Shown here one piece after another: positions 5,044 through 41,817 of a stretch of DNA of 50,017 bases. The notes below the pieces were generated by a model. It searched no databases. It saw only the letters and a program-made list of their open reading frames with translations, and was not told the DNA's origin. The DNA lies in IMG/VR virus record IMGVR_UViG_3300042988_000405, positions 1 through 50,017 of that record, one strand, 5' to 3'. The DNA is from a virus. The stretch's first letter is position 1. Every line of letters starts with the position of its first letter. Made by a program: the position numbers and the translations under genes.

Positions 5044-5065
5044 TTAGAGTATTACTGTGATCTAG

Positions 5066-5102
5066 GAAACCCCTATAAATAAATTATAGGGGTTTCTTTT
5101 TT
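5066..5102 (+). terminator. Rho-independent terminator containing a late promoter
   Basis: A 13-bp perfect stem (5066-5078 with 5084-5096), a 5-base loop and a T run (5097-5102) follow the 545-residue structural gene. The octamer TATAAATA sits at 5074-5081, across the top of the stem and the loop, so late transcripts starting from it would lack the 5' arm. Confidence 0.85.
5074..5081 (+). promoter_or_regulatory. Late promoter TATAAATA inside the terminator hairpin
   Basis: Exact T4 late octamer embedded in the terminator stem-loop. It would start RNA about 10 bases downstream, in the 3' arm, for the genes beginning at 5114. Confidence 0.6.
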
Positions 5103-35707: not shown

Positions 35708-35941
35708 ATGTTTGTAAAATTTTGTGCTGATTGTAAGTGGAGTAAAACTGTAGATAACTCATCTTGGGAACTTCGATGTATGAATCCTTACATCAATAAA
35801 GATGATTCATGGGCCCTGGGGAAACTTAATCATAATGGTTCTGACTGCCAATCTGAGCGAGCAAAGAAGGGTATTATCGGTTTCTTTTCCGAATGTGGTG
35901 TGAAGGGTAAACGATGGGAACAGAAGGATAATGCAGAATAG
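35708..35941 (+). CDS. Cys-rich probable zinc-binding protein (77 aa)
   Basis: ATG at 35708 with CGGAGTTTAAT upstream. The 77-residue product has a metal-site pattern: C-x2-C (CADCKW near residues 6-11), a third Cys in 'ELRCMNP' and further Cys in 'DCQSERA' and 'ECGVKGKRWE'. Similar short proteins with an early C-x2-C and terminal 'CG-x-x-GKxW' occur in many phages without known function. It overlaps the phosphoribosyltransferase gene by 11 bases. Confidence 0.6.
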   Translation: MFVKFCADCKWSKTVDNSSWELRCMNPYINKDDSWALGKLNHNGSDCQSERAKKGIIGFFSECGVKGKRWEQKDNAE

Positions 35942-36404
35942 GTACCTAACTTTAACTTGGACATGGGGTGATTTCGTAGAAGGATTAGAACGACTTAAAG
36001 AAAAATTAAGTGAACAACCTCGACCTAAAGCTATATTTGGTTTAGGTCGAGGTGGGTTGCCTTTGGCAACATGTCTTTCTAATCACTTCAATGTTGAGTT
36101 GATTCCAATTTCATGGACTCCAACATTTAAAGACAAAGACCTGCTAATAAATTCATTATTGGAACACGATTCAAGTTCTACTATCTGGCTTGTCGATGAT
36201 CAAATTGTCACTGGTAATACGATGTGGGAAATCAACAGTTGCATCAATATTCACCCATTCAGTAGGTCTGCAGTTAAGCCAAGGCTGTTAGCAGTTGTCC
36301 TAGAAAATAATTGTGATACAGCTATACCGTATGATATAATTAGTAGTATATCCTATGATTTGTCAAAGGATAGTAGAAGTAGAATTTTTCCTTGGGAGAA
36401 GTAA
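35931..36404 (+). CDS. Phosphoribosyltransferase-fold protein (157 aa)
   Basis: Overlaps the preceding Cys-rich gene. The 157-residue protein has the type I PRTase hallmark 'IWLVDDQIVTGNTM' (residues about 83-96: hydrophobic strand, D-D, T-G-x-T), which binds PRPP, and a first 'IFGLGRGGLPLATCLSNHF' loop. The substrate is not evident: there is no clear purine or pyrimidine hood. It would act in nucleotide salvage or modification. Members of this group occur in T4-like phages next to gene 43. Confident on fold, not on substrate. Confidence 0.8.
   Translation: MQNRYLTLTWTWGDFVEGLERLKEKLSEQPRPKAIFGLGRGGLPLATCLSNHFNVELIPISWTPTFKDKDLLINSLLEHDSSSTIWLVDDQIVTGNTMWEINSCINIHPFSRSAVKPRLLAVVLENNCDTAIPYDIISSISYDLSKDSRSRIFPWEK
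36311..36340 (+). promoter_or_regulatory. Extended -10 promoter for gene 43
   Basis: TG-A-TATAAT (36332-36340) with TTGTGA (36311-36316) at 18-bp spacing inside the end of the PRTase gene, about 65 bases before the polymerase start. Confidence 0.5.
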
Positions 36405-38945
36405 TTGTCAGAATTTTATACTTATGTAAACCAGTGGGGAAATAATATCCTATATCGTGGCATCAAAAACGGTAGGGATGTTATTCTCAAAACTCCTTTT
36501 TCTCCTTCTCTGTTCACAAAGTCTAAGTCTAAAGACACTGAATGGAAGTCAATTTACGGTCATCCTATGGATGAAATTGTGTTCCCAGATATTCGGGATG
36601 CAAAAGAATTCTGTAAAAAGTATGATAGTGTTTCTGGGTTTGAAATCCATGGCATGCAGAATTTCCAATACCAGTATATCGCAAATAAATTCCCAGGTGA
36701 AGTCAAATACTCTTTGACTGATATGAATATTGTAACAATCGACATTGAAACTCGTGTAACGGACAGCCAAGGTCGACAATCTTTCCCAGATATCCAAAAG
36801 GCAGATAATGAAATTCTGCTGATTACTTTGTTTGATAAACATACAAAGAAAGCTACAACATTTGGTGCTCAGCCGTGGGATAAGAGTAAGTGTTGCTTAG
36901 AAGCAAAAGATATCCTAAAAGACATTGTTGTGGACTATCGTTGTTATGATTCAGAATATGCAATGATGTCTGCATTCATCGATTTTTGGTCTAGTAATTA
37001 TCCACATATTGTTACTGGCTGGAATTCTGAGACATTCGACTTCCCATATGTCTGTAACCGTATTGCCAAAATCTTCGGTGAAGATAAGGTAAAACAGCTG
37101 TCTCCTTTTGGCATCGTTAACGAAAAGAAGATGGAAATATTCGGTAAAGATGTACAGATGTTTGATATTGTTGGTATTATTGATGCCGACTTGCTAGTTT
37201 GTGTAAAGAAATATACATACGGCAACAGAGAATCCTATTCGCTAGAGTATGTTTCTACTGAAGAACTTGGTGTTGGTAAGTTACCACATCATGGTACGTT
37301 CCGTGAACAATATGAAAACCACTGGGCAGATTTCGTTGCATATAATATCATCGACTGTTTGCGAGTTGACCAGCTTGATGAAAAGATGCAACTGATCAGT
37401 CTATTGATGGAAATTACCTATACAATCAAATGTAATGCTAAAGATACCTTCGGTACAGTTAAACCGTGGGACATTTTCATCTATAACCATCTAAACGGCA
37501 AGAAGGTATGTGTACCACCTGGTCGTCATAGTAAGAAAGAACCATTCATTGGTGGTTGGGTTAAACCTCCGCAGCTTGGTATGCATGGTTGGACAGTATC
37601 TGTTGACTTTTCGTCACTATATCCTACTATCATTTGTCAGTGGAATATTTCACCAGAAGTATATACTCGATTTAAAGAAACATTTACTATCGACGAATTC
37701 ATTGATACGATTGATTCTGATCAAGAGTATGTTTCTGAGTATGCAGCCTTCAATAATTTGACAGTGTGTGCTAATGGCACGACATACTCCAAAGAAAGAT
37801 TGGGATTTTTGCCAGAGATCATTTTGGGACTTTTGGCTACTCGTAAAGTCGCAAAGAACAAAATGTTGCAACATCAACAAGACAAAGAGTCTGGCAACTA
37901 TACTGATCTTGCAACAATCGAGGCTTTGATTGCATCATTAAACAACAAACAGATGGCGGTGAAGATTCTTAATAACAGTCTTTTCGGTGCTATCGGTAAC
38001 GTTGCATTTAGATACTATGAGTTGCTCATGGCTGAGGCTATTACTTCCACAGGTCAAGCATCTGATCGTCACCTTGAACGTGCTATTAATAAATTCCTTA
38101 ACAAGATCCTTAAGACCACTGACTTTGATTATGTTATCGCAGGTGATACTGACTCATTGTACATCAATGTTGATGCAGTTGTAAAACAACACTGTCCACA
38201 TAAAGATGTTGAAAGTATTACTAAATGGTTGGATGAATTCTGTGAAGGTGTTATCCAACCTGTAATTAACAAGAGTGTCACTTCTATCTTTAAAAAATGT
38301 AATGCTCATACCAAGTTGATGGGTGCTAAACGGGAAGCTATTGCTAGTAAGGCACTATGGCAGGCAGCTAAACGGTATGGTATGGTTGTACATAATTCAG
38401 AAGGTGTGGATTATAAACCATACAAAATCAAGGTTCAAGGTTTGGACATGGTAAAATCAAGTACACCAAAGATTGTACGAGATGATCTTAAAGAATGTTT
38501 GACCAAGATGTTTATCGAAGGTGAACAGGGTATGCAGGATCACGTTCAGAAGGTAAAAGAATCATTCTACAATACTGAACCTGAACTTATTGCTTTCCCT
38601 CGTGGAGTTTCTGATCTTGACAAGTATGTCGATGGGCAAACATATAAATCTGGTTGTCCTATCCACGTTCGTGCAGCTATCATGTACAATAATAATCGTA
38701 CATCGGAGGAACAGACTCCAATTCGCAATGGAGATAAGATTAAGTTCTTGATGTTGAAGTTACCTAATCCTATCAAAGAAAATGTCATTGGTTTCCCTGC
38801 TGATGGTCAATTACCAAACAGAGATGTTTTACTTAAGTATGTTGACTATGATACTATGTGGGAAAAGACATTTGTCGCACCTTTGACTGGATTAACAGAT
38901 GTTTGTGGTTGGAATGTTGAAGAAGTATTTACTTTAGATTGTTAA
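36405..38945 (+). CDS. gp43: DNA polymerase gp43 (family B), TTG start
   Basis: Starts with TTG right after the PRTase stop, with GGGAGAAG upstream; the N-terminus 'SEFYTYVNQWGNNILYRGIK' parallels T4 'KEFYISIETVGNNIVERYID'. At 846 residues it is slightly shorter than T4 gp43 (898). Exonuclease motifs: 'IVTIDIETRV' (D-x-E), 'VTGWNSETFDFPYVC' and 'YNIIDCLRVDQL'. Polymerase motifs: A 'SVDFSSLYPTII', B 'KILNNSLFGAIGN' and C 'AGDTDSLY'. The last residues (WNVEEVFTLDC) match the clamp-binding tail. Single uninterrupted reading frame, no intein. Confidence 0.97.
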   Translation: MSEFYTYVNQWGNNILYRGIKNGRDVILKTPFSPSLFTKSKSKDTEWKSIYGHPMDEIVFPDIRDAKEFCKKYDSVSGFEIHGMQNFQYQYIANKFPGEVKYSLTDMNIVTIDIETRVTDSQGRQSFPDIQKADNEILLITLFDKHTKKATTFGAQPWDKSKCCLEAKDILKDIVVDYRCYDSEYAMMSAFIDFWSSNYPHIVTGWNSETFDFPYVCNRIAKIFGEDKVKQLSPFGIVNEKKMEIFGKDVQMFDIVGIIDADLLVCVKKYTYGNRESYSLEYVSTEELGVGKLPHHGTFREQYENHWADFVAYNIIDCLRVDQLDEKMQLISLLMEITYTIKCNAKDTFGTVKPWDIFIYNHLNGKKVCVPPGRHSKKEPFIGGWVKPPQLGMHGWTVSVDFSSLYPTIICQWNISPEVYTRFKETFTIDEFIDTIDSDQEYVSEYAAFNNLTVCANGTTYSKERLGFLPEIILGLLATRKVAKNKMLQHQQDKESGNYTDLATIEALIASLNNKQMAVKILNNSLFGAIGNVAFRYYELLMAEAITSTGQASDRHLERAINKFLNKILKTTDFDYVIAGDTDSLYINVDAVVKQHCPHKDVESITKWLDEFCEGVIQPVINKSVTSIFKKCNAHTKLMGAKREAIASKALWQAAKRYGMVVHNSEGVDYKPYKIKVQGLDMVKSSTPKIVRDDLKECLTKMFIEGEQGMQDHVQKVKESFYNTEPELIAFPRGVSDLDKYVDGQTYKSGCPIHVRAAIMYNNNRTSEEQTPIRNGDKIKFLMLKLPNPIKENVIGFPADGQLPNRDVLLKYVDYDTMWEKTFVAPLTGLTDVCGWNVEEVFTLDC

Positions 38946-39435: not shown

Positions 39436-40359
39436 ATGTCATTACTAGAAAAGTTAAAAGCATCTGGATCCATCAAAGGAACAACCGTTGCAGAATCCAA
39501 ATTCTTTGGTGTAAAAGAATTTGCACCAACAAGAATCCCAATTATTAATGCAGCACTAAGTGGTACATTAGATGGTGGATTATCCTCAGGTCTTACAGTA
39601 ATCGCTGGTCCATCTAAGCACTTCAAGTCAAACCTAGGGCTGGTTATGGTTCAGGCTTACATGAAGCGACACAAAGATGCAATCTGTTTATTTTATGATT
39701 CAGAATTCGGTGTTACTCCAGAGTACCTAGAAGCCCACGGCATTGAATCTGAGCGAGTACTACACCTACCTATCGAGCACATTGAGCAACTCAAGTTTGA
39801 TATGGCAAAGAAACTTGAAGATATCAAACGTGGCGACAAGATTATTATCTTTATTGACTCGGTTGGTAACCTTGCTTCCAAGAAGGAAGTAGAAGATGCA
39901 CTAGATGAAAAGTCTGTTGCTGATATGACTCGTGCTAAACAGATGAAGTCACTATTCAGAATTGTTACTCCTCATTTCACAATGAAGGATATTCCTTGTG
40001 TTGTAATTGGTCACACTTACGATACTCAAGAAATGTTCAGTAAGAAGGTTCTGTCTGGTGGATGTTTACTTGCTGGTACAAAGATTCAGATGGCTGATGG
40101 TACTCTGAAAAATATTGAAGACATTTCTCCTTATGATAAAGTACGTACATTACTTGGTCCTAAAGAAGTAACTCATACTTGGAATCCTGAAACACTAGCA
40201 GATGGTGAACCAGAATGCTATGAAATTGAGTTTGAGGATGGATATAAAGTTACTTGCTCTGATAAACATAGATTCATTGTAAACGGTGAATGGGTTGAAG
40301 CCAGAAACCTATCAGAGGGTCAAATTGTTAAATCCATTGATGAATATCTTGTTACCTGA
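39436..40359 (+). CDS. uvsX: UvsX recombinase N-extein fused to split-intein N-half
   Basis: Residues 1-209 are the N-terminal part of the RecA-like UvsX: Walker A 'AGPSKHFKSNLG' near 56, 'CLFYDSEFGVTP' near 83, Walker B 'IIIFIDSVGNLAS' near 137 and 'VIGHTYDTQEMFSKKVLSGG'. At residue 210 an intein begins with Cys ('CLLAGTKIQMADGTLKNIED', block A), with block B near 'YKVTCSDKHRFIVNGEW', and the frame stops (TGA) after 98 intein residues. The rest is encoded at 41299. The joined protein would have about 346 residues. AAGGAG precedes the ATG. UvsX catalyses strand exchange in recombination-dependent replication, so splicing would be essential. Confidence 0.93.
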   Translation: MSLLEKLKASGSIKGTTVAESKFFGVKEFAPTRIPIINAALSGTLDGGLSSGLTVIAGPSKHFKSNLGLVMVQAYMKRHKDAICLFYDSEFGVTPEYLEAHGIESERVLHLPIEHIEQLKFDMAKKLEDIKRGDKIIIFIDSVGNLASKKEVEDALDEKSVADMTRAKQMKSLFRIVTPHFTMKDIPCVVIGHTYDTQEMFSKKVLSGGCLLAGTKIQMADGTLKNIEDISPYDKVRTLLGPKEVTHTWNPETLADGEPECYEIEFEDGYKVTCSDKHRFIVNGEWVEARNLSEGQIVKSIDEYLVT

Positions 40360-40368
40360 ATAGTATAA

Positions 40369-40410
40369 TCTCCATTTGTATAAATAACTATATTACACTG
40401 CAAATGGAGA
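40369..40410 (+). promoter_or_regulatory. RBS-hiding hairpin with late promoter in its loop
   Basis: TCTCCATTTG (40369-40378) pairs perfectly with CAAATGGAGA (40401-40410), covering the GGAGA ribosome site of the homing endonuclease. The 22-base loop begins with TATAAATA (40379-40386), so a late transcript would start inside the loop and lack the 5' arm. The same design precedes the other homing nuclease gene at 31625. Confidence 0.85.
40379..40386 (+). promoter_or_regulatory. Late promoter TATAAATA in hairpin loop
   Basis: Exact T4 late octamer. Start of RNA expected near 40392-40397, just before the 3' arm with the ribosome site. Confidence 0.75.
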
Positions 40411-40415
40411 ATATT

Positions 40416-41318
40416 ATGTACATAGTTTATAAACTAACTTTTAAAACCAGAGAATCTACAAACACATTACCTTGTTATTATATTGGATCCAAATCTAATT
40501 GTAAAGTAATAAATGGTGTTATAATAAACGAAGATGGAAGTGAATATTGGAGTAGCTCTAAATCTTCCTCATTTGCTGAGAGTCTAAGTAAAGAATTACC
40601 AGAAGTGGAAATCTTATACGAAGGTACATCAGCAAAAGATGTAAATCAGGAAGAAAACAGATTACAGAGATTAGTAAATGCTGATACTTCTCCATATTAT
40701 TTTAACCAGTTTGTTGCACCAGTTAATAACTTTACTTGGGATAATTATGGTTCATTTAAGCATATAGATTATCCTGAAAAATGCTGTAGATTACCTTTAG
40801 ATCACCCATTAGTACTCAATAGAACATATGTTGGTGTTACTTATGGTGTAAGACTTACCGAAGAGGAAAAGTTTAAAAGGTATGGTGATGATTTTATGAT
40901 TGGTGAAAAAAATCCATTCTTTGGTAGAACTCACTCAGATGAAACAAAGAAAGTTTTATCTGAAAAGAGGATGGGTAAAGATTATCGCTCTAGTGATCAA
41001 ATTGATGAATGGGTTGCTAATATTGCCAAAAAACCTAAATCTGCTGAACATAGAAGTAAGATTGGTAGAAAAGGTTATATTATGCTCAAAAGTGCAATAA
41101 CTGGCGAAACCATTAGAGTTTTAAAAGAAGAATCTGTAAACTATAATCCAGAAGAATGGAAAAATCCAGCCGCATTTAAAACTGGAATTCCTAATGGATC
41201 AAAGTGGTGCAATAACGGTTCAGTTAACTTAAAGATAAAATCAACAGAAGAGTTGCCATTAGGCTATTCTTATGGTAGAATAATGAAAAGGAAAAGTAAT
41301 GAAAATCAAATCAATTAA
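40416..41318 (+). CDS. GIY-YIG homing endonuclease inside the split uvsX
   Basis: ATG at 40416 preferred (GGAGA five bases upstream); an ATG at 40404 lies within that site. The 300-residue protein has a GIY-YIG domain: 'MYIVYKLTF' (IVY), 'PCYYIGSKSNC' (YIG) and 'EYWSSSKSSSF', with a likely catalytic Glu in 'VNQEENRLQRLV', then 'SPYYFNQ'. NUMOD3 repeat at about 163-190 (GEKNPFFGRTHSDETKKVLS). The C-terminus has 'SKWCNNGS...LPLGYSYGRIMK', like the nuclease at 31625. It is encoded between the two halves of the intein, in a different frame from them, and overlaps the C-half by 20 bases. It would promote spread of the intein insertion. Confidence 0.88.
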   Translation: MYIVYKLTFKTRESTNTLPCYYIGSKSNCKVINGVIINEDGSEYWSSSKSSSFAESLSKELPEVEILYEGTSAKDVNQEENRLQRLVNADTSPYYFNQFVAPVNNFTWDNYGSFKHIDYPEKCCRLPLDHPLVLNRTYVGVTYGVRLTEEEKFKRYGDDFMIGEKNPFFGRTHSDETKKVLSEKRMGKDYRSSDQIDEWVANIAKKPKSAEHRSKIGRKGYIMLKSAITGETIRVLKEESVNYNPEEWKNPAAFKTGIPNGSKWCNNGSVNLKIKSTEELPLGYSYGRIMKRKSNENQIN

Positions 41319-41817
41319 GAGTATCGGTAAACAAAAAGTATATGATGTGACTGTTGAGGATGCAGAACACTATGTGCTAGAAAATGGGGTTGTAACACAT
41401 AATACTGGTCTTTACTATAGTGCAAATCAGATTTTTATGATTGGTCGTAGTCAAGAGAAGGATGGTACAGAAGTCTCTGGATATAATTTTACTATCAATA
41501 TTGATAAATCACGATTTGTTAAAGAAAAGTCAAAGCTGGCATTCTCTGTTAACTTCGATGCAGGTATCAATAAATGGTCAGGTCTAATGGATTTAGCACT
41601 AGAATGTGGTCTAGTGAAGAAACCAAGTAATGGTTGGTTCTCCCATGTAGATGCAGAGACTGGTGAAATCTCCGATAAGAAATGGAGAATGGCAGATACA
41701 AATTCTAAGGAATTCTGGCTACCGGTATTACAACAAAAGGCTTTCCAAGATTTTGTTGAGCAGAAATTTAAACTTGCCACTGCATCGATGATGCAGTTTG
41801 ATGATTCAGAAGATTAA
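41299..41817 (+). CDS. uvsX: Split-intein C-half fused to UvsX C-extein
   Basis: ATG with its own ribosome site (AAGGA six bases upstream) inside the end of the endonuclease gene. Residues 1-35 are an intein C-half: block F 'VYDVTVEDAEHYVL' and block G 'NGVVTHN' with the penultimate His and terminal Asn. Residue 36 is Thr, the +1 nucleophile, starting 'TGLYYSANQIFMIGRSQEKD', which continues UvsX exactly where the N-part stops (T4: SGG/TGVMYSAD). The C-extein (137 residues) ends with 'NGWFSHVDAETGEISDKKWR' and an acidic tail. Trans-splicing with the 39436 product would restore UvsX. Confidence 0.93.
   Translation: MKIKSIKSIGKQKVYDVTVEDAEHYVLENGVVTHNTGLYYSANQIFMIGRSQEKDGTEVSGYNFTINIDKSRFVKEKSKLAFSVNFDAGINKWSGLMDLALECGLVKKPSNGWFSHVDAETGEISDKKWRMADTNSKEFWLPVLQQKAFQDFVEQKFKLATASMMQFDDSED

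What the first reader, a model, noticed from the sequence alone, without database searches (positions are those of the whole stretch)
39436..41817. UvsX recombinase encoded as a split intein with a homing endonuclease gene between the halves
Seen: the first ORF carries UvsX residues 1-209 and then a Cys-started intein N-half of 98 residues ending in a stop; 939 bases later a second ORF with its own ribosome site starts with a 35-residue intein C-half ending His-Asn, then Thr and the rest of UvsX. A GIY-YIG/NUMOD3 nuclease gene lies between in another frame. The two halves are in the same frame, as expected if a nuclease gene broke a once contiguous intein. Block B has S-x-x-H after Cys (TCSDKH), as in the gp41-1 type fast split inteins. 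Known: 'fractured' split inteins with a nuclease gene between halves have been described from environmental phages in gp41, IMPDH, DNA polymerase and nrd genes. A uvsX case with a GIY-YIG nuclease may be new.
Basis: partly seen in the sequence, partly recalled or inferred. Interest (0 to 1): 0.92.

Follow-up and report, generated by a model that had tools for sequence, protein, structure and literature searches.

The report
Split phage recombinase rejoined by intein
In this T4-like phage the essential recombination protein UvsX is made in two pieces, with a DNA-cutting gene between them, and is almost certainly stitched together by a split intein; near-identical copies of the same insert sit in phages of different genera, including phages of common laboratory E. 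coli, so its spread can be tested.

Summary
ORF A (39436-40359) is UvsX 1-209 plus a 98-residue intein N-half; ORF C (41299-41817) is a 35-residue intein C-half plus the rest of UvsX. A 300-codon Seg-type nuclease gene (start 40416, not 40404) lies between. Splicing is inferred, but strongly: catalytic residues conserved in 94 of 95 related loci, purifying selection on both halves, no other uvsX in 16 complete relatives, and a contiguous relative folds as an intein. It is not unique: the arrangement sits, unrecognised, in about 20 cultured Straboviridae and many IMG/VR contigs, nearly always at GG|TG. New here: (1) the nuclease has a T4 late-promoter box in a hairpin hiding its ribosome site, a switch known from I-TevI and mobE; (2) the cassette is 99.5% identical between isolates whose UvsX flanks are 81-85% identical, so it moved recently; (3) GIY-YIG, HNH and PD-(D/E)xK-like nucleases occupy the same break, some sharing a tail; (4) one contiguous intein looks re-fused; (5) two contigs carry three-piece uvsX genes. 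The window is a new member of the 'fractured gene' kind. SYGD1 (fractured) and FL23 (empty site), both on E. coli MG1655, make homing testable.

The parts
39436..40062 (+). UvsX N-extein (residues 1-209, up to ...VLSGG)
40063..40356 (+). Intein N-half, 98 aa, starts Cys1, block B CSDKH; stop codon 40357-40359
40360..40417 (+). Predicted RNA hairpin hiding the SD and start of the nuclease gene (outer arms 40360-40380 / 40399-40417)
   Evidence: -17.8 kcal/mol, z -3.54, 0 of 200 shuffles as stable; conserved in kind, not in sequence
40379..40386 (+). T4-type late promoter box TATAAATA at the 5' arm/loop of the hairpin, so late transcripts should lack the 5' arm
   Evidence: on its own this match is at chance level for the window; its position is what is conserved
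40406..40409 (+). Shine-Dalgarno GGAG of the nuclease gene, inside the 3' arm
   Evidence: sequence
40416..41318 (+). Seg-type homing endonuclease, 300 aa: GIY-YIG-like head (about 1-105), NUMOD3, C-terminal tail shared with HNH-type nucleases at the same site
41288..41292 (+). Shine-Dalgarno AAGGA of ORF C (inside the end of the nuclease gene)
   Evidence: sequence
41299..41403 (+). Intein C-half, 35 aa, ends VVTHN
41404..41814 (+). UvsX C-extein (137 aa, starts Thr+1: TGLYYSANQ...), stop 41815-41817

Best explanation
A naturally split intein plus a homing endonuclease gene occupies a highly conserved part of uvsX (GG|TG). The two ORFs are translated separately, the intein halves associate, excise themselves and ligate UvsX 1-209 to the C-part, giving a 346-aa UvsX (inferred; not assayed). 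On early or middle transcripts the nuclease ribosome site is buried in a hairpin; a late promoter inside that hairpin makes late transcripts that lack the 5' arm, so the nuclease is made only late (inferred from sequence and the T4 precedent). In a mixed infection the nuclease cuts or nicks an empty uvsX allele near GG|TG and recombinational repair copies the whole IntN-nuclease-IntC cassette (past transfer is shown by sequence; the cut itself is inferred). Splicing makes the insertion harmless to UvsX.
For: Intein: complementary Pfam, NCBIfam and PDB matches; C1 in 94/95, His-Asn|Thr in 94/95, S-x-x-H in 91/95, Gly(-1) in 92/95 loci; dN/dS of the halves about 0.00-0.17 in pairs where dS is not saturated; contiguous relative L016 folds as HINT (pLDDT 92.6; gp41-1 6qaz TM 0.77/0.83). 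UvsX needs it: 16 complete genomes hold one UvsX-N and one UvsX-C piece, the only extra matches being weak (E>1e-4). Precise insertion: W143 ATGACAGGTGGT|ACAGGCGTAATG against SYGD1, identical up to both junctions. Mobility: UFV01, CF-SP2 and Lion_ER11 (Enterobacter, Salmonella and Klebsiella phages) differ at 5 of 1157 cassette columns while UvsX flanks are 81-85% identical, identity dropping within tens of nt. Late switch: exact TATAAATA in 30 of 44 non-redundant nuclease leaders against 0 of 57 ORF-C and 0 of 53 uvsX leaders; hairpin z < -2 in 28 of 44 against 4 of 57 and 2 of 53; T4 precedent in PMC2988022.
Against: No splicing, cleavage or transcript data for any member. The window is a 50-kb fragment, so a second uvsX elsewhere in this phage cannot be excluded. 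The window nuclease has YWSSS where most relatives have Y(F/Y)GSS, so it may be weakened. The single late box is at chance level for the window (6 found, 5.4 expected), and the box is absent from a minority of loci. The GIY-YIG fold match is weak (E 1.9).
Confidence: 0.88

Rival explanations
1. Gene in pieces without splicing: the two ORFs form a two-subunit UvsX, as in the mobE-split nrdA of Aeromonas phage Aeh1, and the intein remnants are dead.
For: A phage reductase gene split by a nuclease gene works as two peptides (cited in PMC10448857).
Against: Catalytic intein residues kept in 94/95 loci; purifying selection on both halves; cassettes spread intact; the break falls at GG|TG inside the recombinase core, so unspliced halves would carry 98- and 35-residue extensions there.
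Confidence: 0.05
2. The nuclease and intein halves are a decaying insertion in a non-functional uvsX, with recombination supplied by the host or by another recombinase.
For: Some loci have lost the nuclease (about 24 of 84).
Against: UvsX pieces are under strong purifying selection (dN/dS about 0.00-0.22 where measurable), no other uvsX in 16 complete genomes, all reading frames open in the window.
Confidence: 0.03
3. The cassette moves by general homologous recombination only; the nuclease in the window is inactive or has another target.
For: Contiguous inteins without nuclease are also identical between diverged hosts (L016 and L139 intein 100%, flanks about 78-80%); YWSSS change in the window nuclease; no cut site known.
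Against: Nuclease reading frame open, with dN/dS 0.09-0.16 between several related loci (the window-L168 pair is higher, 0.49); nuclease types replaced repeatedly at the same break; tight cassette borders.
Confidence: 0.15

Closest known systems
Fractured genes with split inteins (Dassa et al. 2009, NAR 37:2560; full text not held; cited in PMC3653736 and PMC10448857)
   Same: Conserved phage enzyme gene interrupted by a split intein with a free-standing endonuclease gene between the halves (from memory of that paper, and the NrdA/NrdJ cases mentioned in PMC3653736)
   Different: Host gene uvsX; GIY-YIG or HNH/NUMOD3 nucleases in most loci; late-promoter and hairpin control; evidence of recent transfer between cultured phages. 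Whether that paper already lists a uvsX case could not be checked.
gp41-1 and other phage split inteins (NrdJ-1, Aes123 and CP21 PolB1)
   Same: Typical split site, HINT fold (6qaz, 8ubs, 9hth found by fold search), about 100 + 35 residues
   Different: About 17-24% sequence identity in the fold alignments; +1 residue Thr and -1 Gly; host protein UvsX
T4 I-TevI / I-TevII / I-TevIII, segB, and Aeh1 mobE
   Same: Nuclease ribosome site hidden by a hairpin in early or middle transcripts, late promoter placed so that late transcripts escape (PMC2988022)
   Different: Here the host gene is rejoined by protein splicing, not RNA splicing (I-Tev) and not left in pieces (mobE)
T4 SegA
   Same: Seg-type nuclease acting on uvsX (PMC2988022)
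   Different: segA lies beside uvsX, not inside it, and carries no intein; sequence relation not tested

Membership tests
Naturally split intein | Complementary N- and C-splicing regions on two ORFs | tested here: met
Naturally split intein | Catalytic Cys1, block B His, penultimate His, Asn, Cys/Ser/Thr+1 | tested here: met
Naturally split intein | HINT fold | tested here: met
   Met for the contiguous relative L016; the window's own halves could not be folded as a pair
Naturally split intein | Trans-splicing activity | not testable with these tools
   needs co-expression
Fractured gene (split intein with nuclease gene between) | Free-standing endonuclease ORF between the intein halves of a conserved enzyme gene | tested here: met
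GIY-YIG (Seg-type) homing endonuclease | YIG motif, conserved Glu and FN motifs, GIY-YIG fold | tested here: inconclusive
   Motifs conserved in relatives, PHROG 1.7e-24, I-TevI top fold hit but E 1.9; no Pfam GIY-YIG hit over cut-off
GIY-YIG (Seg-type) homing endonuclease | Site-specific cleavage of the empty allele | not testable with these tools
   needs purified enzyme
T4 late-regulated HEG leader (I-TevI / mobE type) | Hairpin sequestering SD plus late promoter inside it | tested here: met
   met by sequence and predicted structure, transcript start not mapped

The most novel reading that the evidence does not exclude
uvsX of T4-like phages hosts an actively homing split-intein element with a late-stage off/on switch on its nuclease, exchangeable nuclease heads, a reversible split (re-fusion into a contiguous mini-intein), and stacking into natural three-piece proteins joined by two split inteins with an 11-residue middle extein (L082, L178).
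Probability: 0.6. Interest if true: 0.8.

Novelty: new member of a known kind. Interest (0 to 1): 0.64.

Why it matters
It shows a split intein with its nuclease behaving as one mobile unit between sequenced, cultured phage genera, in the very gene (UvsX) that carries out homing recombination in T4-like phages. It links protein trans-splicing to the T4 early/late switch, and it supplies crossable laboratory phages (fractured SYGD1, intein-free FL23, both recorded on E. coli K-12 MG1655) in which homing of a fractured gene can be measured. The family is also a large natural stock of split inteins, including three-piece cases and very short N-halves.

Tried and rejected
Sequencing error or single frame: rejected, 939 nt with an intact nuclease ORF, and the same layout in about 20 isolates. 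'VmeM-32 DNA polymerase also fractured': not claimed, because the two ORFs overlap at a G/A homopolymer run and look like a one-base frameshift. Single-linkage clustering of nucleases merged GIY-YIG and HNH types, explained by a shared tail. Alignment A6 mixed N- and C-halves and was discarded. Trees show many changes of nuclease type (28 on the intein tree of 84 rows) and at least 12 changes of intein presence; branch support was not examined and I lean on pairwise identities instead. Bog contigs L140/L149 share UvsX-N but not UvsX-C and may be assembly chimeras across the identical cassette, so mobility is argued from isolates. A scan for other three-piece genes found only L082, L178 and a two-piece relative L260. 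My typing of L020 as GIY-YIG by pattern was wrong and was changed to PD-(D/E)xK-like.

Full report
What is there. ORF A (39436-40359) encodes UvsX residues 1-209, then 98 residues that begin with Cys and carry the intein N-region and block B; ORF C (41299-41817) encodes 35 residues ending His-Asn, then Thr and the remaining UvsX. The Pfam intein model is matched at positions 36-92 by ORF A and 122-155 by ORF C. Joining the exteins gives 346 aa that align with an intact 355-aa UvsX without a gap at the join. Between the halves is a nuclease gene; by its ribosome site and its relatives it starts at 40416 (300 aa). Pfam sees NUMOD3 only, PHROGs calls it a homing endonuclease at 1.7e-24, relatives share Y-I-G-S-K, a Glu and F-N motifs, and the best fold match is the I-TevI catalytic domain, weakly.

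It is a family. The same layout is in cultured Straboviridae: UFV01, EnC07, TG1, Pm5461, PM2, VmeM-32, SEA1, CF-SP2, Lion_ER11, Thanatos-1, HY03, SYGD1, SNUABM_01, PspYZU05, RPN226, EniLVp02 and BYEP01 were inspected; ELT1 and SP21535 were matched but not fetched. The records name the parts DNA repair or recombination protein, homing endonuclease and recombinase; only the VmeM-32 record notes a 'HintC' domain. PHROG 8337 and 18112 look to have been built from these halves. Scans of IMG/VR, with the isolates, gave 95 distinct IntN+IntC pairs, nearly all at GG|C...HN|T; 84 have both UvsX flanks well enough to be typed: 25 GIY-YIG, 24 HNH, 3 of a second GIY-like type, 3 large PD-(D/E)xK-like nucleases, 24 without an intact nuclease, 5 contiguous. 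Some of the 24 'without' are long gaps with decayed genes.

Is splicing likely? Cys1 in 94 of 95, His-Asn|Thr in 94, S-x-x-H in 91, Gly(-1) in 92. The few exceptions include contig-edge truncations and members of the second insertion site (L082, L178). dN/dS of intein halves is about 0.00-0.17 in the pairs where dS is not saturated, like UvsX itself. A contiguous relative (L016) is predicted as a HINT fold at pLDDT 92.6 and matches gp41-1 and other inteins. In 16 complete phage genomes the only strong UvsX matches are one N-piece and one C-piece. These phages must therefore either join the pieces or work with an interrupted recombinase core; joining is by far the better reading, but no assay exists.

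The late switch. The window has CTCCATTTG-TATAAATA...CAAATGGAG, with the nuclease SD inside the 3' arm: -17.8 kcal/mol, z -3.54. TATAAATA is the T4 late promoter box. Alone it means little (6 in the window, 5.4 expected), but in 44 non-redundant nuclease leaders it occurs exactly in 30, against 0 of 57 ORF-C leaders and 0 of 53 uvsX leaders, and the hairpins are far more stable than shuffles (28 of 44 at z < -2, against 4 and 2). Stems differ in sequence and in design: some hide the SD, others the start codon. The review PMC2988022 describes the same arrangement for I-TevI, I-TevII, I-TevIII, segB and Aeh1 mobE. So the nuclease is probably silent while uvsX is made early, and is translated late.

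Mobility. In isolates UFV01, CF-SP2 and Lion_ER11 the 1157-nt cassette differs at 5 columns while UvsX-N flanks are 81-85% and UvsX-C flanks 81-84% identical; identity falls from the first tens of bases outside. The records come from Brazil, Malaysia and the Chicago area and from different hosts, so assembly chimera is not the cause. Intein-free W143 and FL23 against SYGD1 show a base-precise insertion. Among IMG/VR contigs, L260 (site empty) and L178 (site filled) are near-identical further away and diverge for roughly 100 nt left and 450 nt right of the site, as co-conversion would leave.

Nuclease exchange and healing. The tail of the window's GIY-YIG nuclease (residues about 165-259) is up to 55% identical to tails of HNH nucleases at the same break: heads are swapped on a common tail, probably the part that recognises the site (inference). 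In one group of contigs the same intein (97-100% in IntN) occurs with an intact HNH gene (L137, L140, L149), with the gene deleted to a 36-nt spacer (L152), and as a contiguous intein (L016 and relatives) in which an SD-like stretch and the old ATG (GAGGAAATTATG) are read through in frame. The last is best read as re-fusion of a split intein; the reverse order is not excluded by sequence alone. Several other short-gap loci keep scraps of the nuclease tail.

Stacking. L082 and L178 encode uvsX in three ORFs: UvsX 1-203 + IntN; IntC + 11 residues (SMFPxxxxSGG) + IntN; IntC + UvsX-C. L260, a close relative of L178, has only the first split. L059 is split in the Walker A motif (HFK|TS) by a different intein with a 12-residue N-half and a large nuclease, and again at GG|TG.

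Known or new. Split inteins with a nuclease gene between the halves are a known kind (Dassa et al. 2009, not readable here). Ten searches of the held open-access papers found no description of a uvsX case, but subscription papers are missing. I therefore file the window as a new member of a known kind, and put the switch, the recent transfers, the re-fusion and the three-piece genes as the parts most likely to be new.

Noticed in passing
L082 2082-4010; L178 1430-5398: uvsX in three ORFs joined by two different split inteins with an 11-residue middle extein; L178 has a nuclease gene in both gaps, L082 in neither.
   Followed up: partly
L059 85-2719: Second split intein in the UvsX Walker A motif (HFK|TS) with an N-half of only 12 residues (CLSGDTPISVYY) and a 425-aa nuclease-like ORF in the gap.
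   Followed up: partly
L178 5462-6091; L004 3900-4598: gp41 helicase ORFs that end in short intein-N-like tails (CVHPDTKIRIRKKRRN; CFVAGEEIEVEMNEQ...), so gp41 may be fractured in the same phages.
   Followed up: no
L004 20-1511: VmeM-32 DNA polymerase carries an intein whose halves are in two overlapping frames at a G/A homopolymer run; probably a one-base frameshift or sequencing error.
   Followed up: partly
L003 4079-5458 and L005 4188-5567: A second, 459-aa nuclease gene directly after uvsX in Proteus phages resembles by eye the 483-aa nuclease that sits inside the intein split in L008.
   Followed up: no
window 5059-5100: Terminator-like hairpin AAACCCCTATAA-ATAAA-TTATAGGGGTTT plus T-rich run that also contains a late promoter box (TATAAATA at 5074).
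   Followed up: no
window 36405-38945: DNA polymerase (gp43) ORF whose listed start is a TTG directly after the stop of the upstream in-frame ORF 35931-36404.
   Followed up: no
L014 2447-5086: Ribonucleotide-reductase-like ORF with a contiguous mini-intein whose C-part resembles the window's.
   Followed up: no
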